Assembly: GCA_947470805.1 (NCBI GenBank)
Contig: CANIVU010000056.1
Coordinates: 1-53,437 of the forward strand
DNA length: 53,437 nucleotides
Source: Acidobacteriota bacterium
Lineage (GTDB): Bacteria; Acidobacteriota; Terriglobia; Bryobacterales; Bryobacteraceae
Direction of reading: 5' to 3'
A program made the position numbers and the translations under genes. The notes beneath the pieces were generated by a model, which was not told where the DNA came from, made no database searches, and saw only the letters and a program-made list of their open reading frames with translations. Shown here piece by piece: positions 12,538-51,964 of this stretch; the first letter of the stretch is position 1, and each line of letters starts with the position of its first letter.

Positions 12538-15537
12538 ATGACTACAGTACTTCGCGTGCTCACGCTCTTCGTGTGTCTATTCGCAAGCGCATTCGCCCAG
12601 ACGTTCACGGGCGAGGTGATTGACCCTTCCGGTGCCTCGATCCCGAACGCGCAAGTGAAGCTCACAGGCGGTGCTGGCTTCACCGGCCAGGCCACGACCG
12701 ATGGTGACGGCAAATTCACCGTTGGCGCGGTTCTGCCCGGCAAATACAGCATGCAGATCACCGCCGCCGGTTTCTCTGTGTTTCAGGTCCGCAATATCAC
12801 CGTTACCGGCGCCGGCTATGCCATCAAAGTACGCCTGGCCATCGCCACCGAAAAGCAGACGGTGGAAGTAACCGACGCCGAAGCCGTGACCACCGATCCC
12901 AACTCTTCCGTTGGCGCGATTGTCCTGAAAGGCGAGGATCTGAACATCCTTTCCGACAACCCGGACGACCTCCAAAGCGACTTGCAGGCGCTCGCCGGAC
13001 CGTCAGCCGGACCGAACGGCGGCGAGATCTTCATTGACGGTTTCAGTGGCGGGAAGTTGCCGCCGAAGAGCTCCATTCGCGAAGTGCGCGTCAACATGAA
13101 CCCGTTCTCCGCCGAATACGACCGGCTCGGCTTCGGCCGCATCGAAGTCTTTACCAAGCCCGGAACCGATCGCTACCGTGGCACGGCGAACGTCGGATTC
13201 GGCGACGAGAGTCTGAACTCACGCAATCCATTCGCGGCCAACAAAGCGCCCTACCAGACGCGGAGCCTGGGTCTCAATTTCGGCGGCCCGCTGTCGAAGA
13301 AGTCCTCCTTCTTCCTGGATTTCGACCGCCGCGCCGTGGACGAAAACGCCATCGTCAACGCGACGATTCTCGATTCCAATCTCCTGGCAACGCCCTTCAA
13401 TCAGGCCATCGTCACGCCGACCCGCCGGTGGAGCTTCAACCCCCGTGTCGACTACCAGTTGAACCCGAAAAACACACTGGTTGCGCGCTACGGCTACAGC
13501 CAGTCCGACAACGAAAATCAAGGTTTGGGGCAGTTCAATCTCGCCTCCCGCGCCTACAACACAACCGACCATGACCACTCCGTGCAGATCACGGAAACCG
13601 CCGTGGTGAGTCCCACGACGATCAACGAATCGCGCTTCCAGTTTCTGCGCAGCGACACCCGCCAGCTGGGCGACATCAGCATCCCGTCGATCTCCGTCTT
13701 AGACGCTTTCACCGGTGGTGGCGCCCAGATCGGTGACGCCCGTACCTTGCGAAACTCCATCGAATGGACCAACATCACATCGGTCAACAAGGGCAAGCAC
13801 CTTTGGAAGTTCGGCGGGCGCCTGCGGTCCAGCTGGCTGGACGACAAGAACCCGAACGGCTTCGGCGGCAGCTTCACGTTCGCTGGCGGCGTTGCTCCGG
13901 TGCTCGATAGCAATAATCAGGTCATCGCTGGATCGCAGGCGCCGATCACCTCAATCGAACGCTACCGGCGTACCCTGTATTTCCAACAGCGGGGCCTGAA
14001 CGCGGCGCAGATCCGCGCGCTCGGTGGCGGCGCGTCGCAGTTCTCGTTGACCTCGGGTAACCCACTGGCCAGCGTCACCCAGACCGACTTCGGCGTCTTC
14101 TTTGACGATGCCTGGCGGTGGCGTCCGAACCTCACTGTGAACTACGGCTTGCGCTACGAGAACCAGACCAACATCTCTTCCAATATGAACTTCGCGCCTC
14201 GCGCCAGCATCGCCTGGGGCCTGGACGGCAAAGGCAGCAAACCGGCGAAGACCGTGATGCGACTCGGTGGCGGAATCTTCTATGATCGCTTCCAGGAAAA
14301 TCTCACCCTGCAGGCCCAGCGCTTCAACGGAACCAACCAGCTGCAGTACCTGGTGCCGAGTCCGGACTTCTTCCCGAATCTGCCCACCGCCACGACGCTC
14401 GCCGGTTACCAGACTTCATTGACAACCCGGCGCGTCGCGCAGGATCTGCAGTCGCCCTACGTAGCGCAAACCGTGATTGGCATCGACCGCCAACTGCCGA
14501 AATCGACGACGGTCTCCGTAAGCTTCGTTCAGACCCGCGGCCTGCATACGCTGCGCATCCGCAACATCAACGCGCCCACCCCCGGCACCGGCGTACAGCC
14601 GCTCGGCAGCGCGGCCGGCAACGTCTACTACTACGACTCGTCCGGCTCCTTCCGGCAACGGCAGTTGATGACGAACTTCAACACCCGCTTCCGTTCGAAC
14701 GTCATGCTGTTCGGCTTCTACTCGTATGGTCACGCCAACGGGGATACCGACGGCGCGGGCTCATTCCCTGCCAATACCTACGACCTTTCTACGGAGTACG
14801 GCCGGTCCAGCTTCGATATTCACCACCGTTTTCTGATGGGCGGCAATCTGCGTGGGAAGTGGGGCGTCTCTCTGAACCCGTTCCTGATGTACTCCACCGG
14901 CGGACCCTTCAACATCACCACCGGGCGGGACAACAACGGCGACTCCGTCTTCAATGATCGTCCCTCCTTCGCCGCTGCCGGTGCCACCGGACGCGACATC
15001 GTCAACACGGCCTACGGCACCTTCAACCTGAACCCGCAGCCCGGCGAAAAACTGATTCCGCGGAACTATGGCAACGGGCCGGATTCCTTCACCGTCAACC
15101 TACGCATGAGCAAAACGTGGGGCTTCGGCGAAGCCACCAGTGCGTCGGCCGGCGATGGTGGCGATCGCGGTTCGTTCAGCGGTGGCCCTCCCGGAGGTGG
15201 CCCCATGGGCGGCGGAATGGGCGGTCCCCGTGGCGGTGGCGGCGGCGGTCCGCGCGGTGGCGGCGGCGGTGGTCCTCGTGGCGGAGGCGCGGCGTCCGGC
15301 AAGAAGTACTCGCTCACCTTCTCTGCCTCGGCCCGTAATCTGCTCAATCACGTGAACTACGGCTCACCCATCGGCAACCTCACCTCTCCCCTCTTCGGCT
15401 TGTCCAATTCTCTGGGCGGCGGCTTTGGTGGTCCCGGCGGAGGTGGTGGTGGACGCGGCCCCGGCGGCGGTGGCGGTGGCGGTGGCGGCGGAGCAGGGAA
15501 TCGCAGGATTGATCTGCAGCTTACCTTCTCGTTCTAG
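12538..15537 (+). CDS. Oar-like TonB-dependent outer-membrane receptor with Gly-rich insertions
   Basis: A 999-residue outer-membrane protein. A signal peptide ends around FASAFAQ. Residues ~22-110 form a carboxypeptidase-regulatory-like (SpaA/CnaB-like) domain (GEVIDPSGASIPNAQVKL). A plug domain (GEIFIDGFSGGKLPPKSSIREVRV) and a large beta-barrel follow, ending in the aromatic DLQLTFSF expected for Bam recognition. Two Gly-rich stretches interrupt the last strands, at about residues 880-920 and 955-990. Oar-like proteins are abundant in Acidobacteriota and probably take up oligosaccharides or peptides; the substrate is unknown. A two-component system follows 17 bases later. Confidence 0.87.
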   Translation: MTTVLRVLTLFVCLFASAFAQTFTGEVIDPSGASIPNAQVKLTGGAGFTGQATTDGDGKFTVGAVLPGKYSMQITAAGFSVFQVRNITVTGAGYAIKVRLAIATEKQTVEVTDAEAVTTDPNSSVGAIVLKGEDLNILSDNPDDLQSDLQALAGPSAGPNGGEIFIDGFSGGKLPPKSSIREVRVNMNPFSAEYDRLGFGRIEVFTKPGTDRYRGTANVGFGDESLNSRNPFAANKAPYQTRSLGLNFGGPLSKKSSFFLDFDRRAVDENAIVNATILDSNLLATPFNQAIVTPTRRWSFNPRVDYQLNPKNTLVARYGYSQSDNENQGLGQFNLASRAYNTTDHDHSVQITETAVVSPTTINESRFQFLRSDTRQLGDISIPSISVLDAFTGGGAQIGDARTLRNSIEWTNITSVNKGKHLWKFGGRLRSSWLDDKNPNGFGGSFTFAGGVAPVLDSNNQVIAGSQAPITSIERYRRTLYFQQRGLNAAQIRALGGGASQFSLTSGNPLASVTQTDFGVFFDDAWRWRPNLTVNYGLRYENQTNISSNMNFAPRASIAWGLDGKGSKPAKTVMRLGGGIFYDRFQENLTLQAQRFNGTNQLQYLVPSPDFFPNLPTATTLAGYQTSLTTRRVAQDLQSPYVAQTVIGIDRQLPKSTTVSVSFVQTRGLHTLRIRNINAPTPGTGVQPLGSAAGNVYYYDSSGSFRQRQLMTNFNTRFRSNVMLFGFYSYGHANGDTDGAGSFPANTYDLSTEYGRSSFDIHHRFLMGGNLRGKWGVSLNPFLMYSTGGPFNITTGRDNNGDSVFNDRPSFAAAGATGRDIVNTAYGTFNLNPQPGEKLIPRNYGNGPDSFTVNLRMSKTWGFGEATSASAGDGGDRGSFSGGPPGGGPMGGGMGGPRGGGGGGPRGGGGGGPRGGGAASGKKYSLTFSASARNLLNHVNYGSPIGNLTSPLFGLSNSLGGGFGGPGGGGGGRGPGGGGGGGGGGAGNRRIDLQLTFSF
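15178..15297 (+). repeat. In-frame Gly-rich low-complexity repeat within the receptor gene
   Basis: A run of imperfect GGC/GGT repeats encodes units such as GGPRGGGG three times in tandem. A second tract lies at about 15415-15500. Replication slippage in such a run would change length in steps of three, so the reading frame would usually survive. Confidence 0.8.
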
Positions 15538-43598: not shown

Positions 43599-45167
43599 AT
43601 GATGATTCGATTGGCTGCCGCTATTGTACTGGCTGGCGGCGTTTTTTCCCAACCTGTCATGCCCACCGGTCCTCGGATGATCGAAATTGATCCGAGTAAA
43701 CCGCGCGAGGTCGTCGCTAAGCTCGACGGCCAGTCCATTACCGCCGAAGAGTTCCAGCAACTCTACGTCGCCATGGATGCCAAGTCAAAGGAAGCCACCA
43801 CCAACGATGCGCGCGAAATCCTGCGCTACGTCGGTTGGCTCCGCCGCATGGGGGCCGAAGCCGAAAAACGGGGACTCCACGAACAGAACCCGCTCAAGCT
43901 CCAATTGGAGATGAACCGCATCCAGCTGCTCTCCAACGCCATCATCCAGCAGCACGAAATCGAAGAGGTCGTCACGCCCTTCGAACAGCGCGGCTACTAC
44001 ACCGCCAACGTCGCCGCCTACTCGGGCGTGAAGATGAAGCTCATCTACCTCCCCTTCTCCACCGAGACCGAAGAGCTGCAAGCCAAACGTCGCGCCGAAG
44101 AGATCCACAAGAAGCTCAAGGCCGGCGCCGATTTCGTCGCTCTCGTCAAAGAGTTTTCCAAGGACGAAGCCTCCCGCGAAAAGGACGGCGACTACGGCGA
44201 AGTCCGCATGGGCGACCAGATCCCCCCGGCGGTCAAGGATCTTGCCTACGGCCTCAAGGACGGCGGTATCTCCGGGCCCACCCGCCTCCCCAACGGCTAC
44301 TATCTCTTCAAACGCATCGGCCTCAATACCGACCCCTACGAAAAGGTGCGCGACCAGATCTTCACCGAAATCAAACAGAAGCGCAATCTGGAGTGGGTGG
44401 AGAAGAACCGCAAAGCGGTCCAGGTCACCAAGACCACTCTCGAAGGCAAGCCCGTCACCCCCGCCGAAATCGAAGCCTTCCTCGGCGCCATGGATGAAAA
44501 GCTCCGCTCCAACCTCCGAGATAATCCGGAAGAGATGCTGCGCGGCATCGGCTTCATGCGACGCATGACCAAACTGGCCGAGGAAGCCAAACTCGATCAA
44601 GCCCCTCCCTTCCGCCAGCAGTTGGAACTCACACGGCTCCAGGCACTCTCGAGCGCCCTAATGCAGTCCGCCGAAAAGACCACCACCGTCACTGACGCCG
44701 AAATTCAGCAGGCCTACAAGGAGAATGTGAAGTACGTCTCCGCGGCCAAACTCAAAATCGTCTTCTTCTCCGCCGGCCAGGAAAACGAGGCCGAAAACAC
44801 CGCCGCCCTCGAACTGGCCAAGGACGTTCGCGAAAAAATCAAGAACGGCGCCGATTTCGTGGAAATGGTCAAACAGTACTCCAAAGACCCCGTTTCCCGC
44901 GACAAAAACGGCGATTACGGCCCGCTCAAGATTACCGATGACATCCCGGCGCAGGCCAAACAGGCCATCTGGACGACTCTGAATATCGGGGATGTCAGCG
45001 CTCCCGTCAAACTCCCTAACGGCTACTATCTATTCAAGTTAATGGGGTTGGAGGAGCCGGGGATCGAAAAGGTCCGCGACGACCTGGCGAAACGCCTCAA
45101 GACCGCCAAGGCCCGCGAGTTACTGAATTCCATGCGCGCGCAGGTCCAGGTAGCGCTAACCAAATGA
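43599..45167 (+). CDS. Tandem parvulin-type peptidyl-prolyl isomerase/chaperone, periplasmic
   Basis: A 522-residue exported protein made of two copies of the same ~240-residue unit. Each unit has a helical SurA-like segment (TAEEFQQLYVAMDAK / TPAEIEAFLGAMDEK), then a parvulin domain (KLKAGADFVALVKEFSKDEASREKDGDYG / KIKNGADFVEMVKQYSKDPVSRDKNGDYG) ending in LPNGYYLFK. The His residues expected at the first strand (usually xRHI) and in the last strand (usually HIIK) are absent in both units, which suggests chaperone rather than isomerase activity. It sits just upstream of the trp operon, where base composition switches. Confidence 0.88.
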   Translation: MMIRLAAAIVLAGGVFSQPVMPTGPRMIEIDPSKPREVVAKLDGQSITAEEFQQLYVAMDAKSKEATTNDAREILRYVGWLRRMGAEAEKRGLHEQNPLKLQLEMNRIQLLSNAIIQQHEIEEVVTPFEQRGYYTANVAAYSGVKMKLIYLPFSTETEELQAKRRAEEIHKKLKAGADFVALVKEFSKDEASREKDGDYGEVRMGDQIPPAVKDLAYGLKDGGISGPTRLPNGYYLFKRIGLNTDPYEKVRDQIFTEIKQKRNLEWVEKNRKAVQVTKTTLEGKPVTPAEIEAFLGAMDEKLRSNLRDNPEEMLRGIGFMRRMTKLAEEAKLDQAPPFRQQLELTRLQALSSALMQSAEKTTTVTDAEIQQAYKENVKYVSAAKLKIVFFSAGQENEAENTAALELAKDVREKIKNGADFVEMVKQYSKDPVSRDKNGDYGPLKITDDIPAQAKQAIWTTLNIGDVSAPVKLPNGYYLFKLMGLEEPGIEKVRDDLAKRLKTAKARELLNSMRAQVQVALTK

Positions 45168-45187
45168 TAGGATAGGGGTTACACGGA

Positions 45188-45976
45188 ATGCTCCAAACCG
45201 TCCCCGATATCCTGGCCAAGATTGTCGCCCACAAACGCGTGGAACTCGCTGAGCGGCAAGGAGATCTGCGCCAACTGGAAGCGCGCGCGGAAGCCAGCGC
45301 CGCTTCGCGGCGCGGCTTCCGCAAGGCGCTCGAAGCCTCGAACGGGCCGGCGATCATTTCTGAAATCAAAAAAGCATCGCCTTCGAAGGGGCTTCTTTCC
45401 CCGGATTTTGATCCGGTAAAAATCGCGCAAGTGTATGAAAAGGGAGGGGCTTCGGCGTTAAGCGTCCTTACCGATGAGCGGTTTTTTCAGGGCGGCTGGC
45501 CGGATTTACAGGCGGCCCGGCAGGCCGTAGGCCTGCCGGCGTTGCGCAAAGATTTCACCATCGATCCGCTGCATGTCATTGAAGCGGCGGCGCTTGGCGC
45601 TGACGCCATTCTTCTGATCACCGCGATTCTGGAAACCGCCGAGATGCGGCGGCTGCGGGAACTGGCCGAAAGCTACGGGCTCGATGTGCTGGTTGAGGTC
45701 CATGATGAGGATGAATTCAAACGGGCGTTTGACTCCGGAGCGTCCATAATTGGCGTGAATAACCGCGATTTGCGCACGTTCCACGTCGATTTGGGTACAT
45801 CTTTGCGCATTTCTGAGCGCTTTTCCGAGGGGATTCTGGCCGTCAGCGAAAGCGGCATCCACTCGGCCGACGACGTTCGGCTCCTCCGGTCGGCGGGATA
45901 CCGGGCGTTCCTGGTGGGTGAGCATTTGATGAAATCGCCGGACCCTGCGGCGGCGCTGGAGGCGTTGCGGTCGTGA
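45188..45976 (+). CDS. trpC: Indole-3-glycerol phosphate synthase
   Basis: A 262-residue TIM-barrel enzyme of tryptophan synthesis that closes the indole ring of CdRP. The motifs are PAIISEIKKASPSKGLL (catalytic Lys), ALSVLTDERFFQGG, LRKDFTIDPLHVIEA and LVEVHDEDE, with ISESGI-type ending SESGIHSADDV. It is first in the aromatic operon, 20 bases after the parvulin gene with a GGGG ribosome site. Its last four bases overlap trpF (GTGA). trpE, trpG and trpD are not in the window. Confidence 0.97.
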   Translation: MLQTVPDILAKIVAHKRVELAERQGDLRQLEARAEASAASRRGFRKALEASNGPAIISEIKKASPSKGLLSPDFDPVKIAQVYEKGGASALSVLTDERFFQGGWPDLQAARQAVGLPALRKDFTIDPLHVIEAAALGADAILLITAILETAEMRRLRELAESYGLDVLVEVHDEDEFKRAFDSGASIIGVNNRDLRTFHVDLGTSLRISERFSEGILAVSESGIHSADDVRLLRSAGYRAFLVGEHLMKSPDPAAALEALRS

Positions 45977-46572
45977 CCCTCGTGAAGGTTTGCGGGATCA
46001 CCAGCGTCGACGACGCGCTGGCGGCGGTGGAGGCCGGGGCTGGCGCCCTGGGCTTTAACTTTTACCCGAAGAGCCCTCGCTATATCACCCCGGCTGGCGT
46101 CGCGGTGATCACCGCCCGGGTGCCCGCGGAGATCCTGAAAGTCGGGGTTTTTGTGAATGAATCGCCGGATTCGATCGCCGCGATTGTTAAAGAAGCGGGG
46201 CTCGATGTGGCCCAGCTGCACGGTGACGAAGGCGCGAATGGCGTGCCGCCGGACGTCAGGGTTTGGAAGGCGTTCCGGGTGAACGATTCCTTTGGATTGG
46301 AACAGTTGGAAGCATTTCCGGCGGAGGCGTTTTTGTTGGACACGCCGACGGAGATGTATGGCGGCAGCGGGCACACGTTCGATTGGACGCGGGCGCGCGG
46401 CGCGTCGGGGAAGATATTGCTGGCGGGCGGGTTGGACGAAAGTAATGTACGGCAGGCCATCGCGGTGGCGCATCCATGGGGTGTGGATGCGTGTTCGCGA
46501 TTGGAATCCGCACCTGGAAAGAAGGACCATGGCCGCATGGCGCGATTTATCGCGGCGGCGCACTCAGTATGA
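45973..46572 (+). CDS. trpF: Phosphoribosylanthranilate isomerase
   Basis: A 199-residue TIM-barrel isomerase. The catalytic Cys is in [12 protein letters not shown] (residues 4-15), the Asp in [19 protein letters not shown], and [14 protein letters not shown] forms the phosphate site. It converts PRA to CdRP, just before TrpC in the pathway. GTG start, GTGA overlap with trpC and ATGA overlap with trpB. Confidence 0.96.
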
Positions 46573-47768
46573 TTACGACATCGCAACCGGACAAGGGCGG
46601 GCACTTCGGGCCCTATGGCGGGCGGTTTGTGCCCGAGGTGCTGATGGCACCGTTGGAAGAGCTGGAAAAAGCCTATGAAGTGGCGCGGCAGGACCCGGCG
46701 TTCCACAAAGAGCTCGCCGACCTGATGCACAACTATGCGGGCCGGCCGACGGCGCTGTGGGAAGCGAAACGGCTTTCCGAGAACCTGGGCGGAGCGCGGA
46801 TCTACATCAAGCGCGAAGACCTGCTGCACACGGGCGCGCACAAGATCAACAACTGCCTGGGCCAGATCCTGCTGGCGCGGCGGATGGGGAAGAACCGCGT
46901 GATCGCCGAGACTGGCGCGGGTCAGCACGGCGTGGCGACGGCGACGGTGTGCGCGTTGTTCGGCATGGACTGCACGGTCTACATGGGCGAGGAAGACATG
47001 CGGCGGCAGCGCCTGAATGTGTTCCGGATGCGGTTGCTGGGCGCCAAAGTTGTGGGCGTGACGAATGGCTCGCGGACGTTGAAGGACGCCATCAGCGAGG
47101 CCATGCGCGACTGGGTTACCAATGTTGAAAACACTCATTACCTGTTGGGCTCGGCTTTGGGGTCACATCCTTATCCGATGATGGTTCGCGACTTTCATAG
47201 TGTGATCGGGAAGGAAGCCCGGGCGCAGTTTCTGGAGCGCGAAGGCAAGTTGCCGGACACTGTGTTTGCGTGTGTGGGTGGCGGGTCGAACGCGATCGGG
47301 ATGTTCCACGAGTTCATTGGCGACACGGGTGTGGAGTTGGTGGGCGTGGAAGCTGGCGGCCGGAACCTGACGTTGGGCGAACACGCGGCGCGGTTTGCCG
47401 GTGGCTCGCCGGGCGTGTTGCAGGGTTGCTATTCGTATGTCCTGCAGAATGCGGATGGGCAGATTGCGTTGACGCACTCGGTGTCGGCGGGGCTGGACTA
47501 TGCCATGATCGGGCCGGAACACGCGAATTTGGCCGACGAGGGCCGGGCGACGTATGTGAACTGTTCGGACGCCTCGGCGTTGGCGGCGGCGGTGACGTTG
47601 TCGCGGACCGAGGGAATTATTCCGGCGTTGGAGTCGTCGCACGCGATGGCGGAAGCGATCCGTCGGGCGCCGGCGGAGAAGGGCAAGGTTTTCCTTGTGA
47701 ACCTGTCCGGGCGCGGCGATAAGGACATTGATATTTATCGCGAGAATCTGAAGGATTTGGATGAGTAG
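46569..47768 (+). CDS. trpB: Tryptophan synthase beta subunit
   Basis: A 399-residue PLP enzyme that joins indole and serine. The N terminus is [11 protein letters not shown]; the PLP Lys is in [15 protein letters not shown] near residue 93; the GAGQHG loop and [12 protein letters not shown] phosphate-binding motif are intact. It has the TrpB1 type needed for the alpha2beta2 complex. The protein ends DLDE, and its stop lies within ATGAGTAG, which also starts the following repeat-containing ORF. In relatives trpA usually follows directly; here ~626 bases intervene. Confidence 0.97.
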
Positions 47769-48402
47769 TTGTTGGCTTGAGCGTTCGGTAACGGGCGCCG
47801 CCGCGAGGATTGTTCTGCTGGGTTGGCGTCGCGATTCCGAGTTGTCATCGTGGGCCGCGGCTGTGTCGCGGACGCGGGATGGCCGCGGCCGATCGCGGCG
47901 GCGTGGGCGTAGTGCGTCCGGGGCGTTGTCGCGGCTTGGTGCGGATGGCTTGATTCGCTCTGCCGTGCGGCGTGATTTTGGGCATGGGTTCGGTGCGGTT
48001 GGTGGCCGATGGTCTGGCCTGGTTGGGTCCACGGGTTGGCCTGGGGTTGCGGTGCGGCTGGGTGCGGATGGCTTGATTCGCTCTGTCGTGCGGCGTGATT
48101 TAGGGCATGGGTTCGGTGCGGTTGGTGGCCGATCGTCTGGCCTGGTTGGGTCCACGGGTTGGCCTGGGGTTGCGGTGCGGCTTGGTGCGGATGGCTTGAT
48201 TCGCTCTGCCGTGCGGCGTGATTTTGGGACTGGGTTTGGTGCGGTTGGTGGCCGATGGTTTGACTTGGTTGGGTCTGCGGCGCGGCCTGGGGTTGCGGTG
48301 CGGCTGGGTGCGGATGGCGGCTGGGGAGTGGGGACAGGTACCGATGGAGTTGGGATCGGGATTGGTATGCTTCTAGAGAACGTAAGGGATGTGCATGAGT
48401 AA
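47761..48402 (+). CDS. Possible repeat-containing ORF between trpB and trpA
   Basis: An open frame of 213 codons starts inside the trpB stop (ATGAGTAG) and ends inside the trpA start (ATGAGTAA). It encodes a Gly/Arg-rich product of three 41-residue repeats (unit: [20 protein letters not shown], then [21 protein letters not shown]). I recognise no family. The opposite strand is also open over long stretches, so openness is weak evidence. The operon-style overlaps at both ends favour translation, or at least a length under selection to stay in frame. It could equally be a non-coding minisatellite. Confidence 0.35.
47935..48318 (+). repeat. 123-bp tandem repeat, three full copies plus a partial copy
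   Basis: Copies run 47935-48057, 48058-48180 and 48181-48303, with a ~15-base fourth start at 48304. Each begins CTTGGTGCGGATGGC or CTGGGTGCGGATGGC. Copies 1 and 2 differ at only a few positions; copy 3 is more diverged near its end. The period is 41 codons, so copy-number change keeps frame. It lies wholly between trpB and trpA. Confidence 0.95.
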
Positions 48403-49210
48403 CACACGAATTGGCCGCCGGTTTGCCGAACTGCGCGCGAAGAATGAACCGGCGCTGGTCGCCTACATCACTGCTGGTGATCCGTCGCTCGATGATACGG
48501 TCCGGCTGGTTGCGGCGTTGGAACGCGGCGGGGCGGATGTGATTGAGTTGGGTGTTCCGTTCTCCGATCCGATCGCCGATGGTCCGGTGATCATGCGCGG
48601 TGCCGAACGCGCTATCGCGAATGGCGCCACGCTGCGTGGCGTTCTGGACTGCGCGGCGAAGATTCGGGAACACTCCGAGGTTCCGATTCTGCTGTTCTCC
48701 TATCTGAATCCGCTTATGAAATACGGCTTTGCGAAGTTGGCCGTTGATGCCAAGGCCGCTGGTGTGGATGGGGTCTTGATGACCGACGCCAGTGTGGAAG
48801 AGGCCGAGCCGTACGTGAAGACCATTCGCGAGGCCGGATTGGACACTGTGTTTTTGGCTGCTCCTACGAGCACGCCGGAACGGCTGGCGCTCGTTGGCCG
48901 GTACTCGTCGGGGTTTGTCTACCTGGTCAGCCGGACGGGTGTGACCGGTGAGCAGCAACAGCTTTCTGCGCAGGCGTTGCCGCTAGTTACGGCGATGCGG
49001 GCGCACACCGATCTGCCGCTGGCCGTTGGGTTTGGCATTGCCAAAGCCGCCGATGCCGAGGCCGTTGGCCGATTGGCGGATGGGGTAGTTGTAGGCAGTG
49101 CGTTGGTCCGCGTGATAGAAAAGTACGCGGGGACTCCTGAGATGGAAACCAAGTTGGAAGAGTTGACGCGCGAGTTGAAGACTGGGGCGTTGCAAGGCAG
49201 AGCGAGATGA
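48395..49210 (+). CDS. trpA: Tryptophan synthase alpha subunit
   Basis: A 271-residue TIM-barrel lyase that releases indole from indole-3-glycerol phosphate. The catalytic Glu is in DVIELGVPFSDPIADGPVI, the Asp in GVLMTDASVEEA, and GFVYLVSRTGVTG and AVGFGIAKA complete the site. The catalytic Asp motif, usually DLPPE, reads TDASVEE. The ATG at 48395 has AAGGGA seven bases upstream; an ATG at 48389 is too close. It overlaps the chorismate mutase gene by ATGA. Confidence 0.95.
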   Translation: MSNTRIGRRFAELRAKNEPALVAYITAGDPSLDDTVRLVAALERGGADVIELGVPFSDPIADGPVIMRGAERAIANGATLRGVLDCAAKIREHSEVPILLFSYLNPLMKYGFAKLAVDAKAAGVDGVLMTDASVEEAEPYVKTIREAGLDTVFLAAPTSTPERLALVGRYSSGFVYLVSRTGVTGEQQQLSAQALPLVTAMRAHTDLPLAVGFGIAKAADAEAVGRLADGVVVGSALVRVIEKYAGTPEMETKLEELTRELKTGALQGRAR

Positions 49211-49500
49211 CGCTGGACGAGGCGAAAGAGACACTGACGGCGTGCCGGGAAGAGATCGACGGCATTGACCGGCGGCTGGTGGCGCTGTTGAACGAACGCA
49301 GCCGCGTGGTGGAACGCATTGGCGCCGTGAAGGCCAATATGGACATGCCGGTGTACGAGCCGAAGCGCGAGGACATGGTCTACGCGAATATCATGGCCGC
49401 CAATGGCGGGCCGATTCCGGATGACGCTGTGCGCCGGATTTTTGAACGCATCATCGATGAGATGCGCACTTTGCAACGGACGCGAATGGGGGCGAAGTAG
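49207..49500 (+). CDS. Chorismate mutase, AroQ type
   Basis: A 97-residue helical enzyme that turns chorismate into prephenate. The AroQ pattern is clear: CREEIDGIDRRLVALLNERSRVVERIGAVK with active-site Arg, then PVYEPKREDMVY and a last helix FERIIDEMRTLQR. It is monofunctional, with no prephenate dehydratase domain attached. It overlaps trpA and lies three bases before the DAHP synthase gene; type I-beta DAHP synthases often work with an AroQ mutase. Confidence 0.93.
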   Translation: MTLDEAKETLTACREEIDGIDRRLVALLNERSRVVERIGAVKANMDMPVYEPKREDMVYANIMAANGGPIPDDAVRRIFERIIDEMRTLQRTRMGAK

Positions 49501-49503
49501 GCA

Positions 49504-50523
49504 ATGCTGGTCGTGATGCAAGAGGGGGCACCGGAATCCCAGGTGCAGAATGTCATCGACCGTCTGGTGATGATGGGCTTTACGGTTCATCGTTCGACGG
49601 GCGTGACGCATACGGTGCTGGGCGGTGTGGGGCCGCTGGAGACGTTTGACCCGGCCGAGTTTGAAGTGCTGGACGGTGTGCAGGAGTGCCACCGGATTGT
49701 GTCGCCGTACAAACTGGCGAACAAGCGCTTCCGGCCGCAGGGGACGGTGATCGAGATCGGTTCCGTGAAGATAGGCGGGCCTGAGGTGATCGTCATGGCC
49801 GGGCCTTGCAGTGTGGAGAGCGAGGAGCAGATTGAGATTACTGCTTCCCTCGTCGCCAAGGCTGGTGCGAAGGTGATTCGTGGTGGCGCGTTTAAGCCGC
49901 GCTCGTCTCCGTACAGTTTTCAGGGGATGGGCGAGGCTGGTTTGAAAGTCCTGCGCGCGGCGGCGGACCGGAACGGGCTGCTGGTTGTGAGCGAGGTGAT
50001 GGACCGATCGCAGATTGCGCTGTTGACCGAGTACTCCGACATTTTGCAGGTCGGGGCGCGGAACATGCAGAACTTCAATTTGCTTCGGGATTTGGGGCTT
50101 TCGCGGAAGCCGGTGCTGTTGAAACGCGGCATTGCGGCGACGATTGAAGAGTTGCTGTTGTCCGCCGAATACATCATGTCGGGCGGCAATTATCAGGTGA
50201 TTTTGTGTGAGCGCGGGATTCGCACCTTTGAGACCGCCACGCGGAACACGATGGACATTTCGGCGATTCCGGTGTTGAAGCAGTTGACGCATTTGCCGGT
50301 GATTGGCGATCCGTCGCACGGCGTGGGCAAGCGGACGCTGGTGCCGGCGATGGCGCGGGCTACGGTGGCCGCCGGTGGGGATGGGCTGATCATCGAAGTC
50401 CACCACGATCCGGACCACGCGTTGAGCGATGGGGCGCAGTCCTTGTTCCCCGAGCAGTTTGCGGAGTTGATGGGGCAGTTGCGGCTGATTGCTTCGGCGG
50501 TGGGGCGGTCGATCGCGGGATGA
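49504..50523 (+). CDS. 3-deoxy-7-phosphoheptulonate (DAHP) synthase, type I-beta
   Basis: A 339-residue enzyme for the first step of the shikimate pathway. Residues 1-65 form the ferredoxin-like regulatory domain ([21 protein letters not shown]) known from Thermotoga, where it mediates Tyr/Phe feedback. The barrel holds [56 protein letters not shown] and [15 protein letters not shown]. The gene lies between chorismate mutase and tyrA, so entry and exit of the branch are encoded together. Confidence 0.95.
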
Positions 50524-51350
50524 AAACGGTTGCCATTGCGGGCGTAGGGCTGATTGGCGGAAGCTTTGCGCTGGCGCTGCGGCAGGCAGGGTTTACGGGC
50601 CGGATCTATGGCGTCAGTTCGCCGCGGACGATTGCCGAGGCGCTGGCGCACGGGATTATTGACGGTGAGATGACGCTGGCCGAGGCGGCTTCGACCGCCG
50701 ATTTGGTTTTGTTGGCGCAGCCGATTGGGCGGATTGTTTCGATGATTGAGGAGATGGCGCCGCACTTGGGGCCGTCGACTTTGGTGACCGATGCGGGGAG
50801 TACGAAGGCGTTGATTTGTTCGGCGGCGGCGCGGTTTTTGCCTCCTTCGCAGTTCCTGGGCGGGCATCCGATGGCGGGGAAGGAGTCTCGCGGGGCTTCC
50901 AGCGCCGATGGCGGATTGTTTCGCGGGCGGACTTGGGTTTTGACTCGTGCGATCGAGCATCCGTTTGTGGATTGGGTCCGGAAGATTGGTTCGAACGTGT
51001 TGGTGCTGGGGCCGGAGGAACATGACCGGACGGTGGCGCTGACGTCGCATTTGCCGCAGTTGGTGGCGACGGCGTTGGGGTGCACGGTGGGGGCGGGGTT
51101 GGATCGGGATGAGCAGTTGCGGGCGGGCGGGCCGGGGTTGATTGATATGACGCGGCTGGCGTTGAGCCAGTTCGATATGTGGAATGATATTTTGGCGACG
51201 AATTCGGGGGCGGTGGATGCGGCGCTGGTTTCTATGATTGACCGGTTGGAGGCGATGCGAGGGCATCTGACGGATGGGGAGTTGCGGGGGGAGTTTGAGG
51301 CGGGGGCGAAGTTACGGCGGAAGCTGGTGAATCCGGTGCGGTTGGGGTAG
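50520..51350 (+). CDS. tyrA: Prephenate dehydrogenase
   Basis: A 276-residue NAD(P)-dependent dehydrogenase for tyrosine synthesis. The Rossmann motif is [17 protein letters not shown]; the active site includes [12 protein letters not shown] and [23 protein letters not shown] with the catalytic His, and [10 protein letters not shown] follows. No ACT or mutase domain is fused, so regulation probably rests with the DAHP synthase. It overlaps the DAHP synthase stop by ATGA and is the last gene of the aromatic operon. Confidence 0.93.
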
Positions 51351-51388
51351 CGGGCGCCGAATACTATACTGGAAAGAAATAGGAATTC

Positions 51389-51964
51389 ATGGCATCCCTG
51401 ATTGACGCAATTGACGTGAAACGTCGTACTTTGTTTGAGCTGGAAAATGTTCCGTATATTTGCCTGGAGGCGGATATCAGTTCGCCGACGGCGCGGGGCG
51501 GGCAGACGCTGGTTCGTCTGAAGGTCCGGAACCTGCTGACGAGCGCGGTTTTTGAGAAGACGTTCAAGGCTGGGGAGAAGTTTAAAGAGCCTGATTTGGT
51601 GATGGTGGCGGCTTCCTATCTGTACAGCGATGGGGATGGGTCGCACTTTCTGGATCAGGAGAGCTTTGAGACTTTGACGCTGCCGGCGAACGTGATTGGC
51701 AAGGCGCTCGATTACCTGAAGGAAGGGTCGCTGATCGAGATGCAGAAGTACAATGGCAATCCGATCGGGCTGGAGTTGCCGCAGTTTGTCGAGCTGGACG
51801 TCAAGTATACGGAGCCGGGTGTGAAGGGGAATTCGTCGAGCGGGAGCGTGACGAAGCCGGCGACGGTGGAGACGGGGTTGGAAGTGCAGGTCCCGCTGTT
51901 TATTAAGCAGGGGGAGAAGATCAAGATTTCGACCGAGACCGGGGAGTTTGCCGGGCGGGCGTAG
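51389..51964 (+). CDS. Elongation factor P-like protein (EfpL/YeiP type)
   Basis: A 191-residue three-domain EF-P paralogue. The N-terminal KOW-like domain has the loop SSPTARGGQTLVR, matching the SPTARG loop of E. coli YeiP (EfpL) and longer than the PGKG loop of canonical EF-P. The tip is Arg rather than modifiable Lys. The OB domains end KPATVETGLEVQVPLFI and GEKIKISTETGEFAGRA. EF-P proteins rescue ribosomes stalled on proline-rich sequences. A TATACT -10-like box lies about 25 bases upstream. It is probably transcribed alone. Confidence 0.85.
   Translation: MASLIDAIDVKRRTLFELENVPYICLEADISSPTARGGQTLVRLKVRNLLTSAVFEKTFKAGEKFKEPDLVMVAASYLYSDGDGSHFLDQESFETLTLPANVIGKALDYLKEGSLIEMQKYNGNPIGLELPQFVELDVKYTEPGVKGNSSSGSVTKPATVETGLEVQVPLFIKQGEKIKISTETGEFAGRA

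What the first reader, a model, noticed from the sequence alone, without database searches (positions are those of the whole stretch)
47769..48394. Minisatellite block inserted inside the trpB-trpA junction of an aromatic operon
Seen: about 626 bases separate trpB and trpA and contain three perfect-length 123-bp tandem repeats plus a partial fourth. Established: TrpA and TrpB form one complex, and their genes are normally adjacent or overlapping. Inference: the block is either a small unknown protein translated between the two subunits or a variable-length spacer altering their coupling. The period is a multiple of three, and the open frame overlaps both neighbours, so copy-number change would not break it.
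Basis: partly seen in the sequence, partly recalled or inferred. Interest (0 to 1): 0.72.

Follow-up and report, generated by a model that had tools for sequence, protein, structure and literature searches.

The report
Non-coding repeat spacer splitting trpB and trpA
In one acidobacterial genome the two usually overlapping genes for tryptophan synthase are pushed 626 bases apart by a recently grown, apparently non-coding repeat block; it is a neat natural example of a broken gene-to-gene coupling but belongs to a known kind of bacterial minisatellite.

Summary
In detail: trpB (stop 47766-47768) and trpA (start 48395) are 626 bp apart, and 47931-48318 is a 123-bp array of 3.2 copies. The protein reading fails: the 213-codon frame has non-coding codon usage, changes fall evenly over codon positions, and the closest relative has two stops in it. 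Comparison shows a young junction expansion. Of 29 relatives with a measured junction, 26 overlap trpB and trpA, two have about +11 and +19 nt, and only the closest (G010, Ca. Sulfopaludibacter isolate, ~92% DNA identity) shares the insert, at 221 bp and without the array. The insert lies between two copies of the old stop/start overlap (ATGAGTA). About 41 bp of the trpB end, with trpA's Shine-Dalgarno, seems to be duplicated (29 of 41 identical), so trpB keeps its end and trpA its start. The array was found only in the window's genome. A second, perhaps related array fills hisS-aspS in this genome and one sister. Likely effect (inferred): the ancestral -8 overlap coupling is lost, or relayed through filler ORFs. 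Closest known: mycobacterial MIRU and rnc-fpg1 intergenic repeats; the MIRU test of dispersed copies is not met.

The parts
46569..47768 (+). trpB, complete; its ATG overlaps the trpF stop by 4 nt
   Evidence: NCBIfam TIGR00263, 605 bits; coordinates
47727..47767 (+). left (ancestral) copy of the trpB-end / trpA-start segment, ending in ATGAGTA
   Evidence: orthologous to the trpB ends of relatives; 29 of 41 identical to 48361-48401
47761..48402 (+). 213-codon open frame overlapping trpB and trpA by 8 nt; judged non-coding, at most a ribosome relay
   Evidence: NCBIfam no family, Pfam one hit below its cut-off that no single unit reproduces
47769..47930 (+). left unique part of the insert; the stretch up to 47871 matches G010
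47931..48318 (+). minisatellite, 123-bp unit x 3.2; the unit is a dimer of a 64- and a 59-bp half
   Evidence: TRF, copy comparison, halves
48319..48360 (+). right unique part of the insert, partly shared with G010 (match 48339-48389)
48361..48401 (+). right, diverged copy of the trpB end, carrying a Shine-Dalgarno-like AAGGGA (48384-48389) and ATGAGTA
48367..48402 (+). 11-codon mini-ORF (MLLENVRD..) whose stop overlaps the trpA start; its first 23 nt are identical in G010
   Evidence: function inferred only
48395..49210 (+). trpA, complete; its stop overlaps the chorismate mutase start by 4 nt
   Evidence: NCBIfam TIGR00262, 253 bits

Best explanation
The block is a lineage-specific, non-coding expansion of the trpB-trpA junction. 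Step 1 (shown by comparison): the ancestral junction was an 8-nt overlap in which ATGAGTAA holds both the trpA start and the trpB stop. Step 2 (shown that it happened, mechanism inferred): after the split from G014 and before the split from G010, about 200 bp of DNA came to lie between two copies of that overlap. The duplication seems to include about 41 bp of the trpB end and trpA's Shine-Dalgarno, so trpB kept its last codons and trpA its ribosome site. A local duplication plus filler during break repair or template switching is the likeliest cause. Step 3 (shown that the array is here and not in G010; direction and mechanism inferred): in the window's lineage a ~60-bp segment became a dimer and the 123-bp dimer was amplified to 3.2 copies by slippage or unequal exchange. 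Step 4 (inferred): the stop/start-overlap coupling of trpB to trpA is lost or weakened, and trpA is translated from its own duplicated Shine-Dalgarno. No selected function of the array itself is supported.
For: Junction lengths, with the trpA start projected from the alignment: 26 of 29 relatives overlap (-2 to -32), two at about +11 and +19, G010 at +221; G002 also overlaps; of 28 named loci (many the same genomes; L070-L076 lie outside Acidobacteria), 26 lie at 0 or below, one is G010, one could not be read. Empty site CTGGATGAGTAACAC in G003. Duplication: 7 bp exact here, 10 bp exact in G010, 29 of 41 identical in both; beyond ATGAGTA, 11 of 5000 and 29 of 5000 shuffles score as high. Non-coding. 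The 123-bp unit matches 1 of 61 genomes, the own one, at E <= 0.001. Matches to both ends of the insert at the trp locus are in G000 and G010 only, of 19 genus genomes (the other matches listed there are short, 25-48 bp, E above 1e-4). The G010 fragment matches the last 59-bp half best of four halves compared. A parallel case: hisS-aspS is 975 and 873 bp with arrays in G000 and G004, but 53-55 bp in G014, G003 and G018.
Against: The duplication beyond 7-10 bp rests on a 41-bp alignment with shuffle frequencies of 0.002-0.006. The source of the filler was not found. The chosen frame stays open in only 5.7% of shuffles, so a faint coding or relay role is not excluded. The alignable ends of the insert differ from G010 at 14 of 114 and 9 of 60 sites, less than trpB and trpA third positions (72 of 400, 65 of 272), and a 24-nt block next to trpA is unchanged, so some constraint on the DNA is possible; the middle could not be aligned. 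Copy number comes from a draft assembly and may be collapsed. The left end against the trpA start was not significant (285 and 271 of 5000 shuffles). That G010 lost the array, rather than the window gaining it, is not excluded.
Confidence: 0.78

Rival explanations
1. MIRU-like relay: the insert works as a coupling-preserving cassette. Because it lies between two copies of the stop/start overlap, ribosomes ending trpB restart on the 213-codon frame and, ending it, restart on trpA, so coupling survives.
For: The frame overlaps both genes by the ancestral 8 nt and is in register in G010 too (spacing of copies 634 and 229, both 1 mod 3). A 2025 review says MIRUs insert at start codons with an ORF coupled to the gene (PMC12548453, passage). 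The 11-codon mini-ORF ending on trpA is kept in both species.
Against: G010 has two stops in the frame; codon usage is non-coding; no dispersed copies found.
Confidence: 0.15
2. A real small repeat protein with a 41-residue unit, translated between the subunits.
For: Open frame of 213 codons; period a multiple of three. Small proteins in trp operons exist: TrpM (trpX) lies in the trpCXBA locus of Streptomyces coelicolor (PMC5036795, abstract and passages).
Against. NCBIfam gave no family. Pfam gave DUF7185 at E 3.5e-5, 24.2 bits, below its cut-off of 27; none of three single units nor the left part gave any hit. No plasmid match.
Confidence: 0.03
3. A transposed element (MITE-like) that made a target-site duplication, with the array grown inside it.
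For: Flanking direct repeat of 7-10 bp.
Against: No terminal inverted repeats above shuffles; no second copy of the insert in 19 genus genomes beyond short matches.
Confidence: 0.07
4. The insert carries an internal promoter for trpA and the genes after it, as reported for the MIRU-filled senX3-regX3 junction.
For: By analogy only: that intergenic region is said to drive regX3 on its own (PMC4213456, passages).
Against: No sigma-70-type consensus site in 47600-48500; other promoter types were not tested.
Confidence: 0.05
5. Assembly artefact: chimeric join or false tandem copies.
For: Draft genome of 220 contigs; long repeats can mislead assembly.
Against: G010, a separate assembly, has the same ends at the same junction; the copies differ from each other; the array lies inside a contig.
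Confidence: 0.03

Closest known systems
Mycobacterial interspersed repetitive units (MIRU), as in senX3-regX3
   Same: Tandem units in a junction of co-directional genes; a start-codon site; an internal ORF that can couple to the next gene (PMC12548453 and PMC4213456, passages).
   Different: MIRUs lie at 41 places in one genome (PMC2734929, passage); here one locus, plus one perhaps related array. Unit 123 bp, not 40-100. Overlap -8, not -4. Sequence homology to MIRU was not tested.
rnc-fpg1 intergenic tandem repeats of the M. tuberculosis complex
   Same: A junction of a few bp in relatives grew to 279-358 bp of repeats in one lineage (PMC2734929, passage).
   Different: There repeat length was reported to track mRNA level (passages); no expression data here. 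Gene pair and repeats differ.
E. coli trpB-trpA translational coupling
   Same: Same gene pair. The stop/start overlap is reported as required for efficient coupling (Das and Yanofsky 1989, as cited in PMC10666635, passage).
   Different: Here the overlap is duplicated and the copies are 634 bp apart. In native E. coli test pairs +38 nt (almost) abolished reinitiation (PMC10666635, passage).
Separated trpB1 and trpA of Geobacter
   Same: trpB and trpA are not adjacent (PMC2700814, passage), so loss of the junction is not without precedent.
   Different: There three or more genes lie between them; here non-coding repeats in an otherwise tight operon.

Membership tests
Bacterial intergenic minisatellite / VNTR | Head-to-tail copies of a unit of tens to ~100+ bp in non-coding DNA | tested here: met
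   TRF; non-coding tests
Bacterial intergenic minisatellite / VNTR | Copy number differs between strains of one species | not testable with these tools
   One genome per species is held; between species the array is present here and absent in G010
MIRU | Many dispersed homologous copies in the genome | tested here: not met
   Model of the half-units finds only the trpB-trpA and hisS-aspS arrays at E below 0.001 in the own genome (150 of 10521 candidates scored); the 123-bp unit matches one locus
MIRU | Internal ORF overlapping the next gene's start by 4 nt | tested here: inconclusive
   8-nt overlap at both ends in the window; frame broken in G010
MIRU | Sequence homology to the mycobacterial units | not tested
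   No MIRU sequence was fetched
MITE-like transposed element | Terminal inverted repeats | tested here: not met
   11 of 30 matches in both species, as in shuffles (526 and 724 of 1000 reach it)
MITE-like transposed element | Flanking target duplication | tested here: met
   ATGAGTA here, TGGATGAGTA in G010; also explained by local duplication
Protein-coding gene | Codon usage and third-position bias of changes | tested here: not met

The most novel reading that the evidence does not exclude
The insertion site was not random: an insertion that duplicates the stop/start overlap keeps trpB, trpA and a ribosome relay between them intact. The window (open 213-codon relay), G010 (broken relay, 11-codon relay kept) and G014 (overlap) would then be a natural series for asking whether a heteromeric enzyme really needs overlap coupling.
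Probability: 0.17. Interest if true: 0.5.

Novelty: new member of a known kind. Interest (0 to 1): 0.3.

Why it matters
trpB-trpA is a classic coupled gene pair, and gene pairs with short overlaps are enriched in subunits of heteromeric complexes (PMC10666635, passages). Three closely related genomes with the overlap, a 221-bp gap and a 626-bp gap, with both proteins well kept, suggest that overlap coupling can be given up here. The site also shows how an operon junction can be opened without damage to either gene: duplicate the stop/start overlap with the Shine-Dalgarno and let the space between grow.

Tried and rejected
Small protein: rejected. The Pfam hit DUF7185 (E 3.5e-5, 24.2 bits, cut-off 27) was rejected as a sum over repeats, since none of three single units nor the left part gave a hit at E <= 10. 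RNA element: no Rfam match at 45000-51500 at gathering scores and no unusual folding of the insert (z -1.13, 20 shuffles). Promoter or terminator in 47600-48500: none by consensus (sigma-70 type only). Plain tandem duplication of trpA start plus trpB end: the left end against the trpA start is not significant. Dispersed family: the half-unit model finds two strong arrays in the own genome; in nine relatives it gave weak hits in seven, best E 0.004, and did not list the G010 junction fragment. I read the letters of four weak hits, one from the own genome, and saw nothing repeat-like.

Likeness of the two arrays: half-unit alignments reach z 5.7 against 300 mononucleotide shuffles each, and the DNA search gave E 0.002. 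Against it: the typed core pattern, with up to 3 mismatches, hits the C27 array (7 of 9 own-genome hits) and G004 but not the trpB-trpA array itself, which has an extra base there (hits in 3 of 19 genomes, reversed-pattern control hits in 3 of 19). Both arrays are G+T-rich on one strand, and the model was trained on both. So kinship is only suggestive.

The structure around the trpA start showed nothing clear. Papers: in the lists of five searches I found no report of a repeat array between trpB and trpA or of such minisatellites in Acidobacteria; one search listed 10 of 25 papers; only a few of the listed papers were looked at by passages, and the library is open-access only. No structure was predicted, as nothing here is a likely protein. 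Of the 56 genomes with TrpA, 30 loci were returned (one is the window), so 26 junctions were not looked at.

Correction inside the work: trpB was cut out of frame for the codon score; one search repeats the score with the right frame, and only that is used. In one search minus-strand loci were not turned, so its distances are replaced by those.

Full report
WHAT IS THERE. The window is contig C56 of an 8.7-Mb draft genome, G000; its nearest named kin are Bryobacterales, Acidobacteria and Ca. Sulfopaludibacter records. The aromatic operon runs trpC-trpF-trpB-[insert]-trpA-chorismate mutase-DAHP synthase-prephenate dehydrogenase, all on the + strand. Every other junction from trpC to prephenate dehydrogenase is tight: -4, -4, then -4, +3, -4. 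Only trpB-trpA is open, by 626 bp. In it lies a 123-bp unit in 3.2 copies, 47931-48318, whose copies differ pairwise at 4, 11 and 15 of 123 positions. Each unit is itself a dimer of a 64-bp and a 59-bp half, with 42-43 of 66-68 aligned columns identical.

IS IT CODING? The frame 47761-48402 is open and overlaps trpB and trpA by 8 nt each. This is weak evidence: three of six frames are open; with the repeat structure kept, this frame stays open in 5.7% of 3000 shuffles and some frame in 79%. Codon usage scores -0.23 per codon, against 0.215 as the lowest and 0.417 as the median of 32 stretches of real genes of the same length; the next frame scores higher (-0.013) than the open one. Codon changes between copies are 1, 3 and 4 synonymous against 3, 6 and 9 non-synonymous. 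Against G010, the first 114 nt differ at 5, 5 and 4 sites by codon position and the last 60 nt at 4, 3 and 2, while trpB shows 11, 2 and 72 of 400 codons and trpA 6, 0 and 65 of 272. G010 has two stops in the frame. So the alignable ends of the insert show no coding constraint. They differ somewhat less than third codon positions do, so weak constraint on the DNA is not excluded; the middle could not be aligned.

WHERE DID IT COME FROM? TrpA was found in 56 of 61 genomes. For the 30 loci returned, one of which is the window, I measured the distance from the trpB stop to the trpA start projected from the alignment: 26 of 29 relatives overlap by 2 to 32 nt, two (G025, G032) lie at about +11 and +19, and G010 at +221. 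G002, whose trpA is cut by a contig end, also overlaps. The 28 named loci, many the same genomes and seven from outside Acidobacteria, give 26 at 0 or less, G010 again, and one unreadable. The window and G010 are about 92-93% identical in DNA around the junction; G014 and G003 are the next kin by TrpB and TrpA identity and have the empty site. The insert is therefore shared by two sister species and was not seen outside them. No other of 19 genus genomes has more than short matches to its ends, and the 123-bp unit matches 1 of 61 genomes, the window's own.

THE FLANKS ARE A DUPLICATION. The ancestral site reads ...GGATGAGTAACAC... in G003, in which ATG is the trpA start and TAA the trpB stop. 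Here GGATGAGTAG ends trpB and GCATGAGTAACAC begins trpA, so ATGAGTA stands on both sides; in G010 the exact duplication is TGGATGAGTA. Including these, 29 of 41 positions of the right copy match the trpB end in both species. Beyond ATGAGTA this score is reached by 11 of 5000 shuffles in the window and 29 of 5000 in G010. In the trpB frame the right copy reads [14 protein letters not shown] in G010, against [14 protein letters not shown] at the real trpB end. It carries AAGGGA five nt before the trpA start, the counterpart of AAGGA in the left copy. So trpB kept its end and trpA its likely ribosome site. Terminal inverted repeats are not above chance.

THE ARRAY IS YOUNGER OR LOST IN G010. G010 has a single fragment that matches the last 59-bp half of the array best of the four halves compared. 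The simplest order is insert first, then dimer, then amplification in the window's lineage; loss in G010 is not excluded.

A SECOND CASE. A 57-bp unit in 112-bp dimers, 6.6 units, lies between hisS and aspS in the same genome (the two genes named by recall from their translations), and a 4.6-unit version in G004. Of 17 genus loci with aspS, 14 hold hisS: gaps are 975 and 873 bp in G000 and G004, 53-55 bp in G014, G003 and G018, and 226-933 bp in the nine others; three of 14 have a tandem array, that of G017 with its own 145-bp unit. Junction growth is thus recurrent in this genus, with or without repeats. The two array families look alike in parts and may be related, but the core pattern of one does not hit the other and both are strand-skewed in composition. 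In a further 400 kb of this genome, taken from contigs known by number and not chosen for arrays, Tandem Repeats Finder gave nine rows with period 30 or more; the two largest arrays lie in or look like coding sequence, and the longest other one is a 61-bp unit x 1.9 at L153:807-924.

HOW IT MAY WORK. In E. coli, trpA is translationally coupled to trpB and overlap of stop and start was reported as required; in native test pairs a distance of +38 nt (almost) abolished reinitiation (PMC10666635, passages). From this I infer that a 626-bp gap ends direct coupling here. trpA would then start from its own duplicated Shine-Dalgarno. A relay through the 213-codon frame, or through the 11-codon mini-ORF at 48367-48402 whose stop overlaps the trpA start and whose first 23 nt are identical in both species, remains possible. 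At the observed divergence an unchanged stretch of 23-24 nt is only mildly unlikely by chance (my estimate, a few per cent).

COMPARED WITH THE KNOWN. MIRUs are described as apparently mobile repeats that insert at start codons with a coupled ORF (PMC12548453, passage), and the rnc-fpg1 junction is a few bp in mycobacteria outside the tuberculosis complex but 279-358 bp of repeats within it, with length tracking mRNA level (PMC2734929, passages). The present case resembles both in build. It is not filed as a MIRU: dispersed copies were tested and not found, and homology was not tested. trpB and trpA are apart in Geobacter too, by whole genes (PMC2700814, passage). It is a new member of the known kind 'intergenic minisatellite in an operon junction', of interest for its gene pair and its duplicated stop/start flank.

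Noticed in passing
L085:10226-10598 (G000:C27:35226-35598): Second non-coding dimeric minisatellite (57 bp in 112-bp dimers) between hisS and aspS; fewer units in the sister G004, not found in G014, G003 and G018.
   Followed up: yes
L148 (G017), hisS-aspS junction: An independent 145-bp tandem duplication in the same junction of a more distant genus member; eight other genus members have 226-933 bp there without a detected array.
   Followed up: partly
window 44000-46000: GC skew turns from about -0.3 (28-38 kb; -0.2 at 42-44 kb) to +0.2 to +0.3 (46-52 kb); the insert and the hisS-aspS array follow the local sign of the skew and exaggerate it.
   Followed up: no
L162:19505-19958 continuing into L163: 117-135-bp repeats inside a long coding frame, a Pro/Ala-rich protein with repeated GEFTRMF motifs, between two similar genes that look like type VI secretion TssK by recall.
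   Followed up: no
L153:9917-10797: 243-bp array x 3.6 with coding-like codon usage (81-residue repeat); not identified.
   Followed up: no
window 15220-15294: 24-bp G+C-rich repeat x 3.2 near the end of a 999-aa open frame.
   Followed up: no
G018 (L015), G032 (L034), G057: The TrpA match is listed with one in-frame stop in each of these genomes (TGA, TGA, TAA); sequencing error, pseudogene or match end not decided.
   Followed up: no
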